Source: a virus
Length of the DNA stretch: 64,000 nucleotides
Reading direction: 5' to 3' (one strand)
Virus record (IMG/VR): IMGVR_UViG_3300037502_002993
Coordinates: 124,001 to 188,000 of that record
Numbering within the stretch: the stretch's first letter is position 1; every line of letters begins with the position of its first letter. Below are positions 1 to 48,743 of this stretch, in pieces. The position numbers and the translations under genes were made by a program. Below the pieces are notes generated by a model. It had not been told where the DNA came from, searched no databases, and was given only the letters and a program-made list of their open reading frames with translations.

Positions 1-1573
1 CGGCATCACCCTTGCCCCTCACTCCGACTACATCGCCACCTACTACTACGAAGACGCGTCGACGATGAGCGGCCTTGAGGTATGTGCGGCGATTGTCGTC
101 CTCAATCCGAACATCCCCTCCCCCGTCTCCATTGACTATCAAGTGGTGGGGGGTGACCATGCGTTCTCCACTACCGCACTTGCAGAAGTCCTGGAAACGC
201 TCCGTGACAACGAACAGCCCGTCCAGTGGGCCAGCATTGTCGGTAAGCCCACCATGTTCCCTCCTGGTGGTCACCTACACGCCCTGTGGGAGCTGTATGG
301 CTTTGAATACGTCACTATCCAGCTGGAGCGGATGGTCCGTGCCATTCTGGTGGGTGATCAAGCGACGATGGATGAGATCCGCGCCTACGCCCTACGTCTC
401 CATGAAGACGGCATTGACTACACCGACGCGCTTGATTCGCGTTTCCAGGATCACTTAGCTGATAGTAGCAATCCCCACAGTGTTACCAAAGCACAAGTGG
501 GTCTTGGGAGCGTACCGAACTGGCCTGGTGCTAACCAAACCGAGGCACAGCAAGGAGACCGCAATGACCGCATTATGACACCCCTGCGGACCGCTCAGGC
601 GATTACCACGCAAGCCCTGACGCCTCTTAATGCCCACGTTAATAACACCAACAATCCCCACAGTGTTACCAAAGCACAAGTGGGTCTTGGTAGTGTTCCC
701 GACTGGCCAGGGGCCACTCAAGCTGAGGCCGAGTCCGGCACACGCAATGACCGCATCATGACCCCACTGCGGACTGCCCAAGCGATCTCCACCCAGGCAC
801 TGGCTCCTTTGAACTCGCATGTTCAGAACACCAACAATCCCCACAGTGTTACCAAAGTCCAAGTCGGGTTAGGGAGTGTTCCCGACTGGCCAGGGGCCAC
901 TCAAGCTGAGGCCGAGTCCGGCACACGCAATGACCGCATTATGACTCCCCTACGTAATGCCCAAGCCTTCCCGAGGCGATTTAATGAGCAGGTGCAGAAT
1001 GGCTTTTCCATGCCCAGAAACCAAGACAACTCCACCTTGTCTTTTGGGTCGTGGAATAATGACGGTGCGTTTATACGTCACCGGTCCCCAGATAACAATA
1101 GTGCGTTTTTAGACCTTTCCTGTGGTAATACTACAACGGGCACAAGTCGTAAACTTCAGTTTGGTGGCGGTACCACCAATAATTTTTCCTCCTGGTTAAC
1201 CCTTGATCACGACCTCGCATATTTCACCGGACGTATTAACGCCGTTGATTATTATGTCCGTTCTGATGAACGTTATAAAACTAACCTACGGCCCATTGAC
1301 GATCCACTTGGACGACTTGCTGGGATTGAGGGACTGTTTTATGAGTTCATTGACGACGAAAGTCACGCGGCGGGGTTGAGTGCACAACAACTACAGAAGG
1401 TTCTTCCACAGGCAGTTCGATCGGTTATCGACGATGATGGAAAAGATCGATTACATATCAACCATGGCGGACCTATTGCCCTTTTGGTTAGTTCAGTTAA
1501 CGCACTTCGTGAGATAGTAGATAAACAGAGTGCAGAAATAGACCGTTTGAAAGAGTCAGTGGGGGAACGGTAG
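1..1573 (+). CDS. tail fibre with C-terminal S74 chaperone, 5' end outside window
   Basis: The reading frame is open from base 2, so the protein begins upstream and the first ATG here (65) is probably not the start. The middle holds three copies of a 61-residue repeat containing NPHSVTK, VGLGSVP and RNDRIMTPLR, a type common in phage fibre shafts. The C-terminal 100 residues (from about YYVRSDERYKTN, with LAGIEGLFYEF and a terminal coiled coil) match the intramolecular chaperone of endosialidase (peptidase S74). In that family the domain trimerises the fibre and then cleaves itself off; the SDERYKTN serine is the usual cleavage residue. Inferred role: receptor-binding fibre on the virion surface. 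Fibre identity is well supported; the receptor is unknown. Confidence 0.88.
   Translation, partial: GITLAPHSDYIATYYYEDASTMSGLEVCAAIVVLNPNIPSPVSIDYQVVGGDHAFSTTALAEVLETLRDNEQPVQWASIVGKPTMFPPGGHLHALWELYGFEYVTIQLERMVRAILVGDQATMDEIRAYALRLHEDGIDYTDALDSRFQDHLADSSNPHSVTKAQVGLGSVPNWPGANQTEAQQGDRNDRIMTPLRTAQAITTQALTPLNAHVNNTNNPHSVTKAQVGLGSVPDWPGATQAEAESGTRNDRIMTPLRTAQAISTQALAPLNSHVQNTNNPHSVTKVQVGLGSVPDWPGATQAEAESGTRNDRIMTPLRNAQAFPRRFNEQVQNGFSMPRNQDNSTLSFGSWNNDGAFIRHRSPDNNSAFLDLSCGNTTTGTSRKLQFGGGTTNNFSSWLTLDHDLAYFTGRINAVDYYVRSDERYKTNLRPIDDPLGRLAGIEGLFYEFIDDESHAAGLSAQQLQKVLPQAVRSVIDDDGKDRLHINHGGPIALLVSSVNALREIVDKQSAEIDRLKESVGER
469..968 (+). repeat. tandem 183-bp coding repeat in tail fibre
   Basis: Three direct repeats begin at 469, 652 and 835, an exact 183-bp spacing (61 codons). 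Each opens with CAATCCCCACAGTGTTACCA; the third is cut short near 968. Copies 2 and 3 are most alike, suggesting a recent duplication. They encode the fibre shaft repeat. Confidence 0.9.
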
Positions 1574-11597: not shown

Positions 11598-12443
11598 ATG
11601 ACCCAACACACTTTCCGTCAGCTGTACACTGCATTAGAAGAGTTTCGAGAGGTTGGCAATAACGAAACCGTCTCCAACGAAAGTATTCGTCAGTTCCTCA
11701 CTAACCGAGCTCCTAAGTTGGTCTCTTTATTGAGCGATGTGTTCCGCACCCTATCCACTTGGGATTATAGCCAGCCCGAAGTGCTCAATGTGCGTTCGAT
11801 CGAAGGGGTGCTCAGGAAAGCGGATTTCCAGGAGCTTGAAGGGGTGCTGATGATGAAGCCGGTGGGCTTCAATACCAAGCAGGGTCCTCTTGATGTGTAT
11901 GCCCAACAACTGCTTGACAGACAGGTGGACTCTCTGGTATTGACCAAGGATGTCCTGTCTCGTGTACAGGATGTGCTGAGTGGGTACGTGAGTGACCCTG
12001 AGGCACTCAAGGAGAGGGCTAGGGAGCCGCGAGTACTCAAGGAGCAACTCACTGCCCTTGCTCGGTACAAAGAGCGTGAGGCGCCCTGGTTGGTCGAGGG
12101 AAACCGCACCCACGAGGCTGACTTCACCGTCCTGTTCCATAACCTTAAAGCTTTCAGTGAAACCGCACGACTGGTCAATGCCGTGAACGCCAAACGCTGG
12201 TCAGTGGCCCCACCGAAAGAGGTGGCTATGCGCGGCCAATCCCTTAGTCGAGTAGCAGAAGCCCTTCAGCAGATAATGGAAGGGGGCGGTGTAGTGCCTC
12301 ATCGGGATACCCTTCTTCTTCTGGCCAGTGAGATCGAACTCGCTGCGCTTTGGCTTGAATGGTATTCCGTCCTCACTACTCGCATCATGGACCTGACGGC
12401 GGCTATGAAAACCAATGAACGTAAACTCATGAGGGTTCTGTAA
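11598..12443 (+). CDS. unknown helical protein upstream of lectin-like fibre gene
   Basis: A 281-residue, mainly helical protein. The ATG at 11598 (MTQHTFRQLYTALEEF) is preceded by AAGAGGAA and is preferred to an upstream start at 11517. Long amphipathic helices dominate (FSETARLVNAVNAKRW, GQSLSRVAEALQQIMEG). Its TAA overlaps the ATG of the next gene, giving strong translational coupling to the hypervariable fibre protein. It could therefore be a fibre-attachment or chaperone protein, by context only. A comparable gene is not immediately upstream of the other two paralogues. Confidence 0.6.
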   Translation: MTQHTFRQLYTALEEFREVGNNETVSNESIRQFLTNRAPKLVSLLSDVFRTLSTWDYSQPEVLNVRSIEGVLRKADFQELEGVLMMKPVGFNTKQGPLDVYAQQLLDRQVDSLVLTKDVLSRVQDVLSGYVSDPEALKERAREPRVLKEQLTALARYKEREAPWLVEGNRTHEADFTVLFHNLKAFSETARLVNAVNAKRWSVAPPKEVAMRGQSLSRVAEALQQIMEGGGVVPHRDTLLLLASEIELAALWLEWYSVLTTRIMDLTAAMKTNERKLMRVL

Positions 12444-13276
12444 TGAGGAATCGTCATTTAAGGGGCACTAGCTCACAGCTGAATCAGTTGAACATGGAGG
12501 CCGGTTCGTTAGCTATTGATACCGAAAAGAACGCTCTGCGCTTCTATGATGGAGAAACCCAAGGCGGGTTTGAGGTGTTAGGCACCCGGGCCTATGAACC
12601 CCCGCCTTTACCAGGGCCTCAAACACTGGTAGGAGGAGACCTCCAGGCGGGGTTCTATGGAGAAACCACTCCTGAGGAGTTCATCTCCTACGGTGCGTTA
12701 AGCACTTTGGTAGGGCTCTCCGCGGGGACCCTCCAGCATGATGCTGAATCCTTCTGGCTGAAGTTCAGTCTCGATGGGTCCCCGCTGTACGTCATGAAGA
12801 AGCCTGCACGACACACGGTGTCGTGGGATCAGCTGCACGCGGCGGGCCTGGTCTTTGGGACCAACACTGTGGAGATTGATGGACTCACCTACCAGGTCCG
12901 CCTCCTCAAAGGGGCCAACTCCGACCCCACCACCGATGCCACGGGCTGGGACATCCCCACCAGCCATGGGTCGGAGTGGAACCGACTCATCTACCCCGTG
13001 CACTCAGGCGTACACACCGACACCCGCAACCCCAGTGTGCACAGTGACCCCACGGCCGCGCCCTTCGGCGCCTGGGCGCAGTACAGTGACGCGGATCTGG
13101 TATTGCGTGGTACCGACAATGGTCGCGCCAACTGGTGTCAGGAAACCCCCGCCACCAGCACCAATCGCGTGCCTCGTGGTGCTTCTGGTGTTACGCGCTT
13201 GGATCGCGCTCCCTCTTCGTTTACGAATTCGACTTACGGTTGGAGAGCGGTACTCGTCCCCATCTTAGACAACTGA
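12443..13276 (+). CDS. lectin-like fibre protein with hypervariable C-terminus (copy A)
   Basis: A 277-residue protein, one of three paralogues (others at 27452 and 47740). The N-terminus (RGTSSQLNQLN...GSLAIDTEKNALRFYDG) is a short attachment module. The middle has the pattern W-LKFSLDGSPLYVMKKPARHTVSWDQLHAAG, YQVRLLKG and GSEWNRLIYPVHSG. I associate this pattern with the C-type-lectin-like domain of phage receptor-binding proteins diversified by retroelements. The C-terminus, from residue 229 to GWRAVLVP, holds the variable codons. Inferred role: host receptor recognition. It is translationally coupled to the gene before it and followed by 120-bp tandem repeats and a terminator. Confidence 0.78.
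   Translation: MRNRHLRGTSSQLNQLNMEAGSLAIDTEKNALRFYDGETQGGFEVLGTRAYEPPPLPGPQTLVGGDLQAGFYGETTPEEFISYGALSTLVGLSAGTLQHDAESFWLKFSLDGSPLYVMKKPARHTVSWDQLHAAGLVFGTNTVEIDGLTYQVRLLKGANSDPTTDATGWDIPTSHGSEWNRLIYPVHSGVHTDTRNPSVHSDPTAAPFGAWAQYSDADLVLRGTDNGRANWCQETPATSTNRVPRGASGVTRLDRAPSSFTNSTYGWRAVLVPILDN
13127..13237 (+). other. hypervariable region A (DGR-like VR)
   Basis: 37 codons between conserved GACAATGGTCGC and GGTTGGAGAGC. Against copies B (27491-27601) and C (48421-48531), about 15 codons differ. The changes sit almost wholly at codon positions 1 and 2, with a pyrimidine third base retained (GCT/CTT/AAT, CGC/TTC/ACC, TTT/GGT/ACT). The codons between them are identical in all three. This is the pattern left by adenine mutagenesis of AAY codons. 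Confidence 0.75.
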
Positions 13277-13430
13277 TGGGCACTCACACCGCTCACCGAT
13301 GGAGGCGTGCAGTCCTCGTGCCGGTATAACGCCACCGTCACACGGACCGCCCACCACTGGGGGAGAGCAGTCCTCGTCCCCATCCTAAACGACTGATGAG
13401 CACTCACACCGCTCACCGATGGGGGCGTGC
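13247..13430. repeat. 120-bp tandem repeats after hypervariable region A
   Basis: The last codons and stop of copy A (T1, around CTCGTCCCCATCTTAGACAA) recur 120 bp later, at 13367-13430. In between is a second tail, T2 (GCAGTCCTCGTGCCGGTATA, 13309-13328). Each T1 is itself an imperfect inverted repeat GCGGT...CACCGC. The same module follows copy B, and it is rearranged after copy C. Confidence 0.8.
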
Positions 13431-23655: not shown

Positions 23656-26142
23656 GTGTTCATTACACGACTGCGACTTGAAGGGTATAAGCGGTTGATG
23701 CTTGCTTCTATCAAGGTATTTGAGATTACCCCTCGCCACAGTTTACAGATCATTCTGGGTACAAATGGGTCGGGAAAATCTTCCGTGTTGGAGGAGATGT
23801 CCCCCGTTCCCGGGAACAAAGGGGACTATATCAAAGGGGGAAAGAAGATCTTCGAGTGTCAACACAATGGACATGCCTACGTACTAACCAGCCATTATGT
23901 CCATGGTAGTGGGAAGCACTCCTTTCTCAAGGACGGAGAAGAACTCAACAAAGGGGAAACCCTTCAGATTCAAAAAGAGCTCGCCTTTCAAGAGTTTGGC
24001 CTTAACAAAGAACGCTTAGATGTTCTACTGGGCATTACCCGTTTTACCTCCATGAGCGTGGCCAAGAGGCGGGAGTGGCTGACGGAGTTAAGTCCGGTGG
24101 ACCTCAATTACGCCTTTTCCATTCTGAAGACCGTTAAAGGAGCCAAACGGGATGCTGATGGGGTGGTCAAGCACACCGCACAGCGCATCCATCGGGAAGC
24201 CCAGGACTTTCCTGGTGAGAGTGAACGTCAAGCGCTGAAACAGCGGGTTGCGAAACTCACCGAGCAGCTTAACTTACTGTTTCAACACAGTCGAGTGCAG
24301 GGGCAGGGCACCACGTACACGCATATGTCCTTTGTGGACTCCCTTACATCGTCCTGTGAGGCCCTCAAGGGCATTTTAAAGGGTTACCCAGAGCTACCCC
24401 CCACCCTTCAGGTGAAAACCGCCCAGGAGGCCTCTGAGGCTGTTTTAGGCCTATCTAGGGATTACGGCCATCTAGCGGAACAACTGAAAGCCAAACAAGC
24501 GCAGTATCTGGAGTTAGAGAAACAACAACCCCAGGACCAGGTGACTTACACCGCTGAAGACATTGCGTCGCTGAAAACACGCAAGGAGGAACTAAGACGT
24601 ACATTAGAGGCATTACCGACCCCTTCAGGTACGGAACACTTCCCTCTGATTGAGCTCTCTGACTTCCCCGACGCCTCTAGCTACCTTAAAGGAGTGTTGG
24701 ATGAGTGGGAGGGGCTGATGGTGACCATTCCTGATAATAGCACTGGGCGCTTCTCTCGTGAGTTGTTACAACGCACAGTAGAGCGTCACCGAGCGCTATC
24801 GGCCATGAACAGCCAAAAAGAGGACCGCTGTGTTACCATCCGACGGCGCATGCAAAGCCTAAAGGCCTGTGAGGCCGTGGAGTGTCCTAAGTGTCAGCAC
24901 AGTTTCCGTCCTGGGGTCGACCCGAATGAAGTGGCGGCATTAAAAGCCGAATACAAAACCCTCATCGAAACCCTAGAGAAGGACAAGGTGGCGGTAGAGA
25001 AAGACCAGGGGTACATCGAGGCATGTCAAGAGTACCTGGAGTACCGCAAACGCTTCCATCACCTTAGTCGCATGCACCCGCGCCTGAGGGACTTCTTTGT
25101 GGTGTGGGTCGAGAAAGGGTTAATCCAAGCCCCTCTTACTTATCAGTCCGAGTATGCCCAGTGGCGAGAGCAGATGTTCCTCGCCTTAAAGCGGGCAGGG
25201 GAGGAGAAGGCCCTCAAGACGGTAAGTGAACAGCTGAAGATGGCGGAAGACACTCAGCGCTACCAGAACCATCACCTGAAACAACAACTTAACCACCTCC
25301 AGGGGGAGATTGAAACCCTCACAGGTCGAGTGAGGGATGTTCAACAGCAACATCAAGCACTCAAGCGGACGGTGGAGCACATGCGTCAGCATGAAGGCCG
25401 ACTCAACCATGCGATTCGTGAACTGGAAGTGCTGTTGACTGCCCCACCACAACTACTGGAGTCCTCTCTGGTACAGTTGGTACAAGAGCGCATTAAAGAA
25501 CTCCAACTGCAGCTTGCACAAGCCCAGGAACGTTTGTCTAAGTCTGACATTCAGGAGGGCATCCTCCGTGATCTAGAGGCGCAGCATCAAGCGGTGCTGG
25601 AGTCTCAGGGGGACTATGCATTACTGGTGAAAACCATGAGTCCCAATGAAGGGTTGATTGGTCGTTACCTGATGGGCTTCATGCAGATTGTGGTAAAGTT
25701 CATGAATGCCGTGATCGCACGCGTATGGACCCACTCCCTGGAGATCCTTCCCTCTAAGGTAGACCGAGATGAGCTGGATTACCGGTTTCCCTTAGACGTG
25801 CAGAACGGAGCGGTCACTCCACCCGATATTGCATTGGGGAGCAGTGCTCAGCGTGATATCGTAGATTTTGCCTTTCGTCTGCTGATGATGAAGTTCCTCA
25901 AAATCGAACACCTGCCCTTGTACTTGGATGAGATGGGGAACATGTTCGATGAAGAACACCGGGTTAACCTCGTTCGTTTGATCGAGAACATGTTGGAGGT
26001 AGGACACACCTCACAGGTGTTCTTTATCTCCCACTACATGTCCACTCACGGGGCATTGGAGAAAGCAGCAGACGTCTGTGTGGTGGACGACACCAACATC
26101 ACTGTCCCACAACGCTACAACGAACACGTCATTATTCAGTAA
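23656..26142 (+). CDS. sbcC: SbcC/Rad50-like ATPase subunit of recombination nuclease
   Basis: An 828-residue SMC-type protein with a GTG start preceded by TAGGAGA. The Walker A is GTNGSGKS at residues 35-42. Two long coiled-coil arms flank a zinc-hook motif CPKC near residue 410. The Walker B/D-loop region LYLDEMGNMFDEE is near 755, preceded by a signature-like segment GSSAQRDIVDFAF, and the switch histidine is in FFISHYMS. In the family this ATPase pairs with an Mre11/SbcD nuclease to process DNA ends; T4 gp46 is the phage analogue. No nuclease partner is seen here. It is the first gene of a three-gene + strand unit with dUTPase. Confidence 0.88.
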   Translation: MFITRLRLEGYKRLMLASIKVFEITPRHSLQIILGTNGSGKSSVLEEMSPVPGNKGDYIKGGKKIFECQHNGHAYVLTSHYVHGSGKHSFLKDGEELNKGETLQIQKELAFQEFGLNKERLDVLLGITRFTSMSVAKRREWLTELSPVDLNYAFSILKTVKGAKRDADGVVKHTAQRIHREAQDFPGESERQALKQRVAKLTEQLNLLFQHSRVQGQGTTYTHMSFVDSLTSSCEALKGILKGYPELPPTLQVKTAQEASEAVLGLSRDYGHLAEQLKAKQAQYLELEKQQPQDQVTYTAEDIASLKTRKEELRRTLEALPTPSGTEHFPLIELSDFPDASSYLKGVLDEWEGLMVTIPDNSTGRFSRELLQRTVERHRALSAMNSQKEDRCVTIRRRMQSLKACEAVECPKCQHSFRPGVDPNEVAALKAEYKTLIETLEKDKVAVEKDQGYIEACQEYLEYRKRFHHLSRMHPRLRDFFVVWVEKGLIQAPLTYQSEYAQWREQMFLALKRAGEEKALKTVSEQLKMAEDTQRYQNHHLKQQLNHLQGEIETLTGRVRDVQQQHQALKRTVEHMRQHEGRLNHAIRELEVLLTAPPQLLESSLVQLVQERIKELQLQLAQAQERLSKSDIQEGILRDLEAQHQAVLESQGDYALLVKTMSPNEGLIGRYLMGFMQIVVKFMNAVIARVWTHSLEILPSKVDRDELDYRFPLDVQNGAVTPPDIALGSSAQRDIVDFAFRLLMMKFLKIEHLPLYLDEMGNMFDEEHRVNLVRLIENMLEVGHTSQVFFISHYMSTHGALEKAADVCVVDDTNITVPQRYNEHVIIQ

Positions 26143-27298: not shown

Positions 27299-27486
27299 CA
27301 CGCCCCCACTGGTGGGCGGTGTGAGTGCCCATCAGTTGTCTAAGATGGGGACGAGTACCGCTCTCCCCCAGTGGTGGGCGGTCCGTGTGACGGTGGCGTT
27401 ATACCGGCACGAGGACTGCACGCCTCCATCGGTGAGCGGTGTGAGTGCCCATCAGTTGTCTAAGATGGGGACGAGTACCGCTCTCC
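27299..27486. repeat. 120-bp tandem repeats after hypervariable region B
   Basis: Read on the minus strand, the tail of copy B is followed by T1, T2, T1. The block 27311-27370 is nearly identical to 27431-27490, a 120-bp period. It is almost identical to the flank of copy A 14 kb away, including untranslated bases, which argues for recent copying or gene conversion. Confidence 0.82.
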
Positions 27487-28288
27487 AACCAAAATGCGAA
27501 TTCGTACCCGAAGAGGTACTGCGACCCAAGAACGTAACACCAGAAAGACCACGATGCACGCGCTGGGTGCTGGTGGCGGTGGTTTCTTGACACCAGTTGG
27601 CGCGACCATTGTCGGTACCACGTAATACCAAATCACTGTCACTGTACTGCGCCCAGGCGCCGAAAGGCGCGGCAGTGGGGTCGGTGTGCACCGTGGGGTT
27701 ACTGGTGTCGGTGTGCACACCGGAGTGGATGGGGTACAACAACCGGTTCCACTCCGACCCGTGGCTGGTGGGGAGGTCCCAACCCGTGGCATCGGTGGTG
27801 GGGTCGGAGGCAGCACCGCGCAGCAGGCGGACCTGGTAGGTGAGTCCATCAATCTCCACAGTGTTGGTCCCAAAGACCAGGCCCGCCGCGTGCAACTGGT
27901 CCCACGACACACTGTGTCGTCCCGGTTTCTTCATGACGTACAGCGGGGACCCGTCAAGGGAGAACTTGAGCCACGCCGACTCGGCATCATGTTGCAGGGT
28001 CCCCGCGGAGAGCCCTACTAGGGTACTCAGGGTACCGTAGGAGATCAACTCTTCAGGAGTAGTTTCACCGTAGAACCCCGCCTGGAGGTCTCCTCCAATC
28101 AAGGTTTGGGGACCCGGTCCCGTAAATACCGGCTCATACGCCCTAGTCCCCAGGATTTCAAAACCACCCTGTATGTCGTCGAGGTGAAAGCGTAACGCTT
28201 TCTTCTCTAAATCGACAGCCATCATCCCTTCAGGTAGATTGAGTGTGTTGTTAAAGGCGGTATCGCCATGAGTAAGTTTTGTCTTCAT
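27452..28288 (-). CDS. lectin-like fibre protein with hypervariable C-terminus (copy B)
   Basis: A 278-residue paralogue of the proteins at 12443 and 47740, with a perfect GGAGG before the ATG. The N-terminal 50 residues differ (MKTKLTHGDTAFNNTLNLPEGMMAVDLEKKALRFH). From FEILGTRAYEP onward it is close to copy A: LKFSLDGSPLYVMKKPGRHSVSWDQLHAAG, YQVRLLRG, GSEWNRLLYP. The variable segment then ends in the invariant GWRAVLVPILDN. Inferred role: alternative receptor-binding tip. It lies alone between dut and the small gene at 28349, with terminators on both sides, as expected for a mobile or duplicated unit. Confidence 0.78.
   Translation of the reverse strand: MKTKLTHGDTAFNNTLNLPEGMMAVDLEKKALRFHLDDIQGGFEILGTRAYEPVFTGPGPQTLIGGDLQAGFYGETTPEELISYGTLSTLVGLSAGTLQHDAESAWLKFSLDGSPLYVMKKPGRHSVSWDQLHAAGLVFGTNTVEIDGLTYQVRLLRGAASDPTTDATGWDLPTSHGSEWNRLLYPIHSGVHTDTSNPTVHTDPTAAPFGAWAQYSDSDLVLRGTDNGRANWCQETTATSTQRVHRGLSGVTFLGRSTSSGTNSHFGWRAVLVPILDN
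27491..27601 (-). other. hypervariable region B (DGR-like VR)
   Basis: 37 codons aligned without gaps to regions A and C. It differs from A at about a dozen codons (CAT for CCT, CTT for GCT, TTC for CGC, GGT for GAT, AGT for GCT, GGT for TTT, CAT for ACT). The interspersed codons do not change. Confidence 0.75.
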
Positions 28289-41900: not shown

Positions 41901-44900
41901 CGGTCACTCTCTCGACCACTAACCCATTATTACCTATGGTCCGCTTAAAACCCCCCTAACTGCGGGAACCTGCTAATGATGCTGTTACTACCACTTGTCG
42001 GGGGAAACCCACGGCAACACCCACTCCAGTAATGGAAGTAGTGGGCAGGGTAAAAACGTAACAGCTAGGCACAACCGACGCAACGAAGTCCCTACGTTGG
42101 TCAATCGACCAATATGGGATGTGTTCAGAGGCCATCGAAAACTACAGCTTGTTTAATGCAAGCCTAATGACACAGGTATAGAACCCTGTGGTCTCCACGG
42201 AGATTAAAGTGAGTAGAGTAGCTGATTTCTATATCGGCGAAACGGGGGGCTTCTGTTTGCTATTCACGAACCAGAAGAAGATATGGTCCAATTTGAATTG
42301 ATTGCTTCCAATTCGTAAGATCTCTCCAAGCAGGGTTGCTCTCACCTCTTACTATAATAAAACGTTTGTCGACCGCTCTTCTCGCTCTACGAATAACTTT
42401 GCTCAATGGGTCACACGCCAAATGACCCAGATCGGACTTGATCCGGATAACGACCAGATCACTAACCTGAAGTTAGGTAATGCGTTTGATCAGTCCATTG
42501 AAGTGCCAAGGGTTTACTCCTTGCTCTCAGCGCGCTTTACGCAATTTGCCGTAGGGCCACTACAGTTCTACTTGAGCTACCATAAACGAGCTGCTCATTT
42601 TGAACAACATGGGATACGGGTAGAACAGGTAGAGAAAGAAGGGCGAACGGTAATCGGGATGGATCGTGAGTCATTAAGTCCCATCACGGTAGATGCCAGT
42701 GACACTTTCTATCTGGGCGATGAGCCCTTAGGTACTCTGTGTCAGGTAGTGGGACTTCCCGAAGCCAAAGCACCGCTGGATATCGCGGAGGTAGGGGTTT
42801 CCAATAAGGTCATCCCGGTGGGGTTGGTGCTGGCTTACCAGATGGGGCTGTCTAAACTCATCGAGAAACTTAATTGTGATGTGGCCAGACACCGACGGGG
42901 CAGTCGGTTTGAAATGGCCGATGATGAGTACAGTGTGGTCTTTCAGGATGAGGTGCTTGTCTTCTCGCGGTTGGATCGACGGGCCTCACTGGTGTTGGCG
43001 GGACTGAATCGCTATCACCGCGCCCTACGGCAATTCAGTGTCTGGGACTTTGATCGTAAAGACGTCTACCACAACGTCCTTCTGGATCAGGGCCTTGGGG
43101 TGCGCTACCTGCGGGAAATCGATACCCTCTTTAATGTCTGGGTTGATCCCATCACAAAAGGACTCCTGGAGGAGATGGGGGAACCCACTGACTTTGGAGG
43201 ACTGCTCCTCAGAAGTGCTGACCTACTGCTACACGACCACGCTCCCAATGAGGTAGAAGGGGAGTACATGCGCTATCGGGGGTATGAGCGCATGGCAGGG
43301 ATGGTCTATGGGGAGCTGGCGAGGGCCTGCAAAGCCTATCACGCGCGCAGTCACTACGGTGATGCTGCAGTGGATCTAAATCCCCACCAGGTGTGGCAGC
43401 GCATTGTGGGTGACCCCTCATCCATGATCGTGGAGGAAGCCAACCCCTTTACGGTGGTCAATGAACAGGAAATCATGACCTATCGTGGAGATGGCGGTCG
43501 TAGTGGTAAGTCCATGGTGAAGCGGACGCGTATCTACTCTGACACTGATGTCGGGGTAGTGAGTGAATCCACCCTAGATTCGGGAGATGTCGGGGTAGTG
43601 GCGTACCTGGCCCCTGATGCGAACTTCACCTCCACTCGGGGATTGACCCGACGTTACGATAAAAGTAAGGATGGCGCAGCAACCCTCCTATCCACTGCTG
43701 CACTCAATGCCCCTTGTGCGGACAGAGATGACGCCAAGAGAATCCGATAAGTTGGTTCCCCCAGCAGGTAACTGTTGGGTAAACACTCCTCTAATTGCTG
43801 GGACCTCTCGTAAGACCTTAGGTACGATCCCGTTCCGAAAGGAAGCCATGGATAGCCGGGCCTGTAAGAATCCTAAGGATAGAGACAACCATGCAGCGAA
43901 GTCCCTAAGCCTACTCAACGAGTAGGGATGGGATGTGTTCATCGACTATCGAAAGGCGCCCATTAGGGCGAACTGAGTAGAGTAGGGCCAAGCGGTAGGC
44001 CGCTAACGTGGAATGGCGTTAGTTATAAGTCCTTTAAACCGAAACGGGGAGCTTCCTACTTGTTAAGAGAGGAAGAAGATATAGTCAGTCCTTTAGCGAG
44101 AGTTAAAGGTAACCATGGAGTGGTTAGCTCGATCTAGCGAATCGGGTTTGGAAAGGGAAGGAGGATTTCACCCAATTAGGGTGATCTTCATCTGTGTACA
44201 GCGCAACTTTATCTCAGTGCAAGCAAGACAGGGCATTTGGGCGGAAGGGTATACGGTCACGCCACTAAGGACGGGGTATGAACAGGTACTGGCCTCACGG
44301 GTAACAGATCTGTTCGCGACCATGGCACAGCAAGATGGGAAGGTTACGTCAGTGGAAGAGAATTCCATTGTGGTGACCTATAAGGATGGGACGCAGGAGA
44401 AGGTCCTTCTTGGGAAGCGCTACGGTAAAGCCGCTGGGTATACCTACCCACAGACCTTGGTAACGGATCTAAAGGTAGGGGATAAGGTTAAGTCAGGTGG
44501 GGTGATTGCGTATAATCGTAACTATTTCATGCCTGATACCTTTAATCCCGGTCATGTGGTATTGAAAGCGGGGGTAATGTGTAAGGTGGCCCTGATGGAC
44601 CCCATCGATGCTTTGGAAGATGGGTCTGTTATCTCTGAGGAGATCGCCAAGCAGTTCACCACGCAAACCAGTGAGGTCAGGACCCTGCAAGCGCGTTTTG
44701 ATCAGTCTGTCAGGGACCTAGTGAAAGTCGGCGATCATGTGGACTTGGATTCCATTCTATGCATTATTGAAGACCCGGAGATCCGCGATAATCCCCTGTT
44801 CAATGACATTGCCATGGATACCTTAAGAAAGCTCTCTTCCCACACCCCACGAGCAAAAGTGACAGGGGTGGTGAGCCGAGTTGAGGTGTTCTATCATGGT

Positions 44901-47739: not shown

Positions 47740-48561
47740 ATGAAAACACGCTATTTGAGGGGCACTCGTGCACAGTTAAATGCCCTAAATCTCCCTGAGG
47801 GGAATTTAGCTATTGATGTAGAAACCAAGGCTTTACGGTTCTTTGATGGAGAAACCCAAGGCGGCTTTGAGGTCCTGGGAACACGGGCCTATGAGCCCTC
47901 ACCTCCTGGACCCACTGAGTTAATTGCGGGTGATTTAACCACTGGTTTTTATGGCGAGGTGGGGCCTGAGGAGTTCATCACCTACGGTGCCCTGAGTACC
48001 TTGGTTGGGTTGAGTGCGGGGACCCTCCAGCATGATGCTGAATCCCTCTGGCTGAAGTTCTCCCTCGATGGGTCCCCGCTGTACGTCATGAAGAAGCCTG
48101 CACGACACACGGTGTCGTGGGATCAGCTGCACGCAGCGGGCCTGGTCTTTGGGACCAACACGGTGGAGGTCCAAGGACTCACCTACCAGGTCCGCCTGCT
48201 GCGCGGTGCTGCCTCCGACCCCACCACCGATGACATCGGCTTCGACATCCCCACCAGTCATGGGTCGGAGTGGAACCGGTTACTGTACCCCATCCACAGT
48301 GGGGTCCACACCAACACCAATAACCCCACGGTGCACACTGACCCCACTGCTGCGCCTTTTGGGAGCTGGGCACAGTACAGTGACAGTGATTTGGTATTAC
48401 GTGATACCGACAATGGTCGCCTCACCTGGTGTCAAGAAACCGCCGCCACCAGCACCCAGCGCGTGTATCGTGGTAATCCTGGTGTTACGACCTTGTTTCG
48501 CAATACCTCTTCGACTACGCGTTCGGATGTCGGTTGGAGAGCAGTCCTCGTGCCGGTATAA
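47740..48561 (+). CDS. lectin-like fibre protein with hypervariable C-terminus (copy C)
   Basis: A 273-residue paralogue of the proteins at 12443 and 27452. The first 80 residues diverge (TRAQLNALNLPEGNLAIDVETKALRFF, then PTELIAGDLTTGFYGEVGPEEFITYG). From about SALSTLVGLSAG to GSEWNRLLYP it is nearly identical. The variable part follows, and the end is GWRAVLVPV: it uses tail T2 instead of T1. It sits between two genes that are neighbours in phiKZ order, so it is an insertion into a conserved block. Inferred role: receptor-binding tip. Confidence 0.78.
   Translation: MKTRYLRGTRAQLNALNLPEGNLAIDVETKALRFFDGETQGGFEVLGTRAYEPSPPGPTELIAGDLTTGFYGEVGPEEFITYGALSTLVGLSAGTLQHDAESLWLKFSLDGSPLYVMKKPARHTVSWDQLHAAGLVFGTNTVEVQGLTYQVRLLRGAASDPTTDDIGFDIPTSHGSEWNRLLYPIHSGVHTNTNNPTVHTDPTAAPFGSWAQYSDSDLVLRDTDNGRLTWCQETAATSTQRVYRGNPGVTTLFRNTSSTTRSDVGWRAVLVPV
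48421..48531 (+). other. hypervariable region C (DGR-like VR)
   Basis: 37 codons aligned with regions A and B without gaps. It has private codons CTC, ACC, TAT, AAT, CCT, ACC, TTT, ACT, CGT, GAT and GTC at the variable positions. Unchanged blocks include TGGTGT, GCCACCAGCACC and GGTGTTACG. Confidence 0.75.
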
Positions 48562-48743
48562 CGTCACCGTCACACGGACCACTCACCAGTCCGGGAGAGC
48601 GGCGTGAGTGCCCATCAGTTATCTAAGATGGGGACGAGTGCCGCTCACCAGTGGGGGCGTGCCGCATCGGGTCACTGGCGTGCCCCGCGTAAGCGTGGGG
48701 TCCCTGTGACCTGTTAACATCAACAACCACCGTAGGGGGTGGT
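48537..48743. repeat. rearranged tail module and hairpins after copy C
   Basis: T2 (48537-48590) follows region C directly. T1 follows in the opposite orientation at 48598-48644, bounded by GAGCGGC and GCCGCTC. Next comes a nested hairpin with outer stem GGTCAC/GTGACC (48670-48675 with 48706-48711) and inner CCCCGCG/CGTGGGG-type stem (48683-48700). A further hairpin is ACCACC/GGTGGT (48726-48743). No ORF is seen in this stretch before 48799. Confidence 0.7.

What the first reader, a model, noticed from the sequence alone, without database searches (positions are those of the whole stretch)
13127..13237. Three lectin-like fibre genes carry a DGR-type hypervariable segment, with no reverse transcriptase in the window
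Seen: regions A (13127-13237), B (27491-27601, minus) and C (48421-48531) align gap-free over 37 codons. About 15 codons differ, almost only at positions 1 and 2, with the third base kept as C or T. Only one synonymous change is found (CAG/CAA). Invariant codons alternate with variable ones, and flanks are near-identical. Known: diversity-generating retroelements copy a template repeat into such lectin-fold C-termini while randomising adenines, typically in AAY codons. Inferred: one off-window template and reverse transcriptase diversify three receptor-binding genes of this jumbo phage. The reconstructed template would read AAY at the variable codons.
Basis: partly seen in the sequence, partly recalled or inferred. 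Interest (0 to 1): 0.9.

Follow-up and report, generated by a model that had tools for sequence, protein, structure and literature searches.

The report
Retroelement-written phage genes lacking their retroelement
A giant phage carries five copies of a receptor-type gene whose tips were scrambled by a known mutation machine (a diversity-generating retroelement), yet its apparently complete genome lacks the reverse transcriptase and a usable template, so the machine was either lost or is borrowed from another genetic element.

Summary
The 220,598-bp record has five, not three, dispersed genes with the hypervariable segment. In that segment codon positions 1-2 vary and position 3 hardly does, the reverse of the flanks. 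The record has a 120-bp exact terminal repeat, so it is probably complete. No reverse transcriptase and no matching template repeat were found in it. A divergent Avd gene follows one target, and a decayed template-like stretch follows the Avd gene.

The mechanism is a DGR. The template reconstructed by writing A at every variable site matches a real DGR template in a Halomonas plasmid, between Avd and RT. Its nine AAY codons are exactly the nine fully variable codons here (P = 7.6e-7). A siphovirus homolog with a full DGR agrees.

An isolated jumbo phage, Salicola SCTP-2, shows the same pattern in three genes, also with no RT, Avd or template found. Verdict: DGR-written genes in phiKZ-related jumbo phages without the writing machinery; loss is somewhat likelier than supply in trans.

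The parts
12443..13276 (+). target gene A, phiKZ-type virion structural protein with a lectin-like C-terminal domain (277 aa)
   Evidence: ORF; phrog_1062 5e-41, phrog_16120 9e-39; AlphaFold/Foldseek
13166..13243 (+). VR core of A (CGC GTG ... GGT TGG), nine fully variable and three partly variable codons
27452..28288 (-). target gene B (278 aa)
27485..27562 (-). VR core of B
47740..48561 (+). target gene C (273 aa)
48460..48537 (+). VR core of C
13241..13422 (+). three ~60-bp imperfect palindromes directly behind VR A, at the place where DGRs carry a recognition hairpin; the first overlaps the stop codon
   Evidence: the canonical GRNA-loop hairpin is not present
27311..27487 (-). three palindrome units behind VR B
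48536..48650 (+). two palindrome units behind VR C, the second inverted relative to A, B and D

Best explanation
The five variable segments are DGR variable repeats. A reverse transcriptase copied a non-coding template repeat carrying AAY at nine codons, misreading adenines, and the cDNA replaced the 3' end of each target gene. This overwrote the invariant skeleton and randomised positions 1 and 2 of the AAY codons. The targets are receptor-binding-type lectin-like tips of phiKZ-type structural proteins (receptor binding is inferred). Shown by sequence: the VR signature, the match of the reconstructed template to a real DGR template, an Avd-like gene behind target D, and no RT or matching template found in the record. 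Inferred: the phage descends from one with a cis DGR (target D - avd - TR - RT) that lost RT and most of the TR. I rate later loss at about 0.5 and writing by an RT plus template supplied in trans from another replicon at about 0.3. The confidence given is for 'DGR-written, machinery missing from this genome'.
For: Codon-position pattern 76/64/12 against 22/28/52 upstream and 17/11/40 downstream. Fully variable codons are exactly the AAY codons of the Halomonas DGR template (P = 7.6e-7), which only the reconstructed template found, in non-coding DNA between Avd and RT. L026: homologous target, bAvd, TR and RT; its AAY/TAY codons cover eight of the nine variable codons. Avd behind target D: NF033474 E = 3e-9, PF22296 1.5e-5, Halomonas Avd 3.8e-7. 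Template remnant behind it: 23/28, best non-VR match in the record; gapped match reached by 1 of 5000 shuffles. 120-bp terminal repeat. RT searches negative with RVT_1, Brt, L026 RT and Halomonas RT. Same pattern in SCTP-2.
Against: Writing itself was not seen: there are no reads. The true template is unknown. The Avd scores are below curated cut-offs. The remnant template differs from the VR skeleton at non-A bases, so it did not write the present VRs. The canonical GRNA-loop hairpin is absent. One VR codon (AAT/CAG) and two T/C third bases do not fit pure adenine mutagenesis.
Confidence: 0.87

Rival explanations
1. Recent loss: an ancestor had a complete cis DGR at target D. RT and most of the TR were deleted, leaving avd and frozen VRs in five genes, some of which received their C-terminal end by recombination.
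For: Avd and a template-like remnant sit in canonical order behind D and no RT follows. D is a mosaic: its C-terminal part is nearly that of the others while the rest differs.
Against: The remnant has decayed while VR skeletons show almost no synonymous change (3 codon pairs). SCTP-2 would need a separate loss. The Avd-like ORF is intact.
Confidence: 0.5
2. Supply in trans: RT and a cognate template sit on another replicon in the host (prophage, phage-plasmid or chromosome) and write the phage VRs during infection, perhaps with the phage's own Avd.
For: VRs look freshly homogenised compared with both flanks. Two jumbo phages lack RT and TR but keep VRs. DGRs occur on a Halomonas plasmid and in a Chromohalobacter phage. 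BPP-1 DGR parts act on a VR placed on another replicon (PMC3240598, PMC12875486).
Against: No donor with a matching skeleton was found in species genomes, plasmids, phages or viral contigs. The Halomonas template matches only 34 of 50 non-A positions.
Confidence: 0.3
3. The RT and template are present in the phage population but missing from this assembled consensus (deletion variant or assembly fault).
For: The record is a metagenome assembly; no reads were available to check it.
Against: 120-bp terminal repeat. The avd-to-next-gene junction holds no long repeat of the VR that would force a misjoin. The isolate SCTP-2 lacks them too.
Confidence: 0.15
4. Ordinary diversifying selection or gene conversion among paralogs, with no retroelement.
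For: The genes are paralogs that clearly recombine; such loops evolve fast.
Against: Third bases at variable codons stay C/T, except at the NCG site and the CAG codon, across very different amino acids. Conversion would also homogenise the variable sites. The variable codons coincide exactly with AAY codons of a real DGR template.
Confidence: 0.03

Closest known systems
DGR of Halomonas qaidamensis XH36 plasmid NZ_CP080628.1 (target, Avd, TR, RT)
   Same: Homologous target domain; its TR has AAY at exactly the nine fully variable codons found here; Avd homologous to the phage ORF
   Different: Complete cis cassette with RT, one target found by the searches; non-A skeleton only 34/50 identical, so it is not the writer of these VRs
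DGR of siphovirus contig IMGVR_UViG_2585427699_000002 (L026)
   Same: 37%-identical target, VR sites line up, bAvd homologous
   Different: Complete cassette with RT and an 89-bp TR in a 33.9-kb record
Bordetella phage BPP-1 DGR (mtd, avd, TR, brt)
   Same: Works like it: adenine-directed VR diversity at the 3' end of a receptor-binding gene (PMC3240598)
   Different: BPP-1 has RT, TR and a GRNA-loop hairpin; here none of these was found. No Brt homolog
Salicola phage SCTP-2 (MF360958.1) genes at 66.7, 345.6 and 400.1 kb
   Same: Same domain and site pattern, also no RT, Avd or TR found; not described as such in the papers found here
   Different: Isolated phage, 440 kb; three targets; different VR skeleton and 3' flank

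Membership tests
Complete diversity-generating retroelement (DGR) | Reverse transcriptase | tested here: not met
   RVT_1, Brt, L026 RT and Halomonas RT all negative in the record
Complete diversity-generating retroelement (DGR) | Template repeat matching the VR at non-A positions | tested here: not met
   Only the five VR copies; a decayed 28-nt remnant with non-A mismatches behind avd
Complete diversity-generating retroelement (DGR) | Accessory protein Avd | tested here: met
   115-aa ORF behind target D: NF033474 E = 3e-9, PF22296 1.5e-5, both below curated cut-offs; Halomonas Avd 3.8e-7
DGR variable repeat (target side only) | Variation confined to positions that are A in the template, typically AAY codons | tested here: met
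   Indirectly, through homologous templates: nine of nine AAY codons coincide; eight of nine for L026; the cognate template itself is unknown
DGR variable repeat (target side only) | C-type lectin / formylglycine-generating-enzyme fold presenting the variable residues | tested here: inconclusive
   Best PDB hits TvpA (E 9e-3) and FGEs, low TM-scores; strong matches to phiKZ-type virion proteins
DGR variable repeat (target side only) | Short hairpin with a GRNA loop 4-34 bp behind the VR (PMC3240598) | tested here: not met
   Larger imperfect palindromes with other loops instead; the L026 control has a GAGA loop
DGR variable repeat (target side only) | Adenine-site diversity arising in a live population | not testable with these tools
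   No reads or passage data

The most novel reading that the evidence does not exclude
A standing trans-acting arrangement: jumbo phages carry many DGR target genes but no RT or template, and are diversified during infection by a DGR resident in the host cell (prophage, phage-plasmid or chromosome), perhaps with a phage-encoded Avd.
Probability: 0.28. Interest if true: 0.85.

Novelty: new variant of a known kind. Interest (0 to 1): 0.64.

Why it matters
[quoted passage not shown] A comparative overview of 224 jumbo phages found no FGS-type (DGR-type) lectin domains in them (PMC7824862). Here two jumbo phages carry multi-gene DGR variable repeats without an RT, one of them an isolate, so the question of trans writing versus loss is directly testable. 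Searching with a reconstructed template also offers a way to find RT-less DGR targets and their possible donors.

Tried and rejected
Exact VR-skeleton scans of IMG/VR viral contigs (SCTP-2 skeleton): none. TR-skeleton scans of genome contigs: the first pattern gave none; the second gave six loci that are unrelated sequence by translation. VR A against plasmids and phages by distant blastn: none. Avd homologs in viral contigs or phage records: none. A possible SCTP-2 template at 361,759: only 20 bp with no further match, rejected. A TR-like hit at record 67,039-67,062 lies inside a coding gene, rejected as chance. SCTP-2 reconstructed TR in plasmids: none. A kinship search from the Halomonas record was not possible. 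Ordinary diversification was considered and rejected on the third-base pattern.

Full report
OBSERVATION. The window is positions 124,001-188,000 of a 220,598-bp virus record. Searching the record with 191 bp around A gives five full copies: A, B, C, plus D (115,284-115,474, minus) and E (43,899-44,059, plus, one codon shorter). In a codon alignment of the five genes, the 25-codon variable stretch has pairwise differences 76/64/12 at codon positions 1/2/3, with 91 nonsynonymous and 3 synonymous codon-pair differences. The 30 codons upstream show 22/28/52 (28 nonsynonymous, 49 synonymous), and from GW to the stop 17/11/40. Variable sites by codon position are 12/9/2 in the segment and 25/23/49 in the flanks, P = 0.00027. 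So the segment has a skeleton more conserved than either flank, with hypervariable codons set in it. A block overwritten from a common template gives this pattern; drift plus selection does not.

TARGET PROTEINS. A, B and C match phiKZ-group virion structural families (phrog_1062, phrog_16120) and PhiPA3, SCTP-2 and RisingSun proteins. The window also encodes an RNA polymerase beta-type subunit (phrog_2986), which fits a phiKZ-related jumbo phage. An AlphaFold model of A (mean pLDDT 77) has as best PDB matches TvpA, the Treponema DGR variable protein, then formylglycine-generating enzymes; E-values are weak (9e-3 and above) and TM-scores low. Against predicted viral structures the matches are phiKZ-group structural proteins, down to 1e-20. 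A receptor-binding role is inferred.

DGR ORIGIN. Three independent comparisons bear on this. (1) L026, a 33.9-kb viral contig, has a 37%-identical target followed by bAvd, an 89-bp non-coding copy of the target's end, and an RT. VR and TR differ at three sites, all A in the TR. Its AAY/TAY codons fall on eight of the nine fully variable codons here (P = 0.0001). (2) I wrote A at every variable position 1 and 2 of the jumbo-phage VR and searched plasmids with this 105-nt reconstruction. One record matched, a Halomonas qaidamensis plasmid, 75.6% over 78 bp, E = 1e-5. The match is non-coding and lies between a four-helix-bundle gene and an RT gene, behind a homologous target. VR A itself found nothing there. 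The AAY codons of the Halomonas TR are exactly the nine fully variable codons of the jumbo phage (chance 1 in 1.3 million), and 12 of its 13 VR/TR differences are at A. (3) Salicola phage SCTP-2 has three dispersed paralogs with the same pattern: 23/22/6 differences by codon position in the segment against 12/8/15 just upstream, at sites that coincide with ours.

MACHINERY. The record starts and ends with the same 120 bp, the usual sign of a complete circular or circularly permuted assembly; the tool's own wording on the ends is ambiguous. RVT_1, Brt, the L026 RT and the Halomonas RT all fail to find an RT in it. No further copy of the VR skeleton exists outside the five genes. The same RT searches fail in SCTP-2, and so do the template and Avd searches. 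One part does exist. Directly behind target D, at record 114,687-115,034 (minus), a 115-aa ORF matches DGR Avd (NF033474 E = 3e-9; PF22296 1.5e-5; Halomonas Avd 3.8e-7; L026 Avd 1.6e-6 at Z = 10,000), below curated cut-offs but in the canonical place. About 36 nt after its stop begins the best non-VR match in the record to the reconstructed template: CCTGCGTATGAACTGTGGTAATACTGGT, 23/28, E = 0.017, with A at the five predicted A positions of the first three variable codons. A gapped match over the intergenic stretch is reached by 1 of 5000 shuffles. Beyond the 28 nt the similarity is poor, and the next gene follows soon after. I read this as a decayed cis DGR: target D - avd - template remnant - RT lost. 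The remnant differs from the VR skeleton at non-A bases, so it did not write the present VRs.

LOSS OR TRANS. For loss: the decayed cassette in cis. For trans: the VR skeletons look younger than the remnant, an intact Avd-like ORF persists, two jumbo phages show the same lack, DGRs occur on a Halomonas plasmid and in a Chromohalobacter phage, and trans writing of a VR on another replicon works for BPP-1 (PMC3240598, PMC12875486). No donor with a matching skeleton was found in species genomes, plasmids, phage records or viral contigs; metagenome contigs could not be scanned. I give loss 0.5, trans 0.3, assembly or population variant 0.15.

KNOWN CONTEXT. In 60 rows evenly spread over the 158 phage records that match the Halomonas RT, no record exceeds 134 kb. 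An overview of 224 jumbo phages reports no FGS-type lectin domain in them (PMC7824862). The literature searches found no description of RT-less DGR targets in jumbo phages, but only open-licence papers are held, so absence from these results is weak evidence of novelty.

DOWNSTREAM PALINDROMES. A and B (three units each), C and D (two each) carry ~60-bp imperfect palindromes right after the VR, one inverted in C; E has none. They occupy the place of the DGR recognition hairpin but lack its form. Their role is open.

Noticed in passing
window 13241-13422, 27311-27487 (minus), 48536-48650; record 115,198-115,313: Arrays of ~60-bp imperfect palindromes, each encoding a 'WRAVLVP' end plus a stop, inserted between the VR and what looks like the native gene end; two or three units per gene, one unit inverted behind C, none behind E. 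They look like mobile palindromic units.
   Followed up: partly
L002 1495-2424 (minus), record target D: Target D is a mosaic: its C-terminal part is nearly identical to A, B, C and E, while its N-terminal two thirds is much more diverged, so the variable end has moved between genes.
   Followed up: partly
window 469-1017: Three head-to-tail copies of a 183-nt unit (100, 77 and 63% to the reference copy) inside a tail-fibre-like ORF.
   Followed up: no
window 23656-26142: A gene matching an SbcC-like subunit of a palindrome-specific endonuclease (phrog_77) lies near target B, whose end carries palindromes.
   Followed up: no
window 12443-12560 and 47740-47860: Very weak similarity of the N-termini of A and C to the Mtd N-terminal domain of BPP-1 (PF18454 E = 0.15 and 0.48; tblastn of Mtd 0.01 at A).
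   Followed up: no
L016 12650-12700 and the other two SCTP-2 loci (L036, L037): About 50 bp of non-coding DNA behind the stop codon is nearly identical in all three SCTP-2 target genes, as expected for a DGR recognition site, but folding gave no significant structure.
   Followed up: partly
L010 2720-6625 (minus), record 108,220-112,125: A 1301-aa protein made of repeated collagen-like and 'SAYxVAVxxGFxGTxxEWLxSLKG' units.
   Followed up: no
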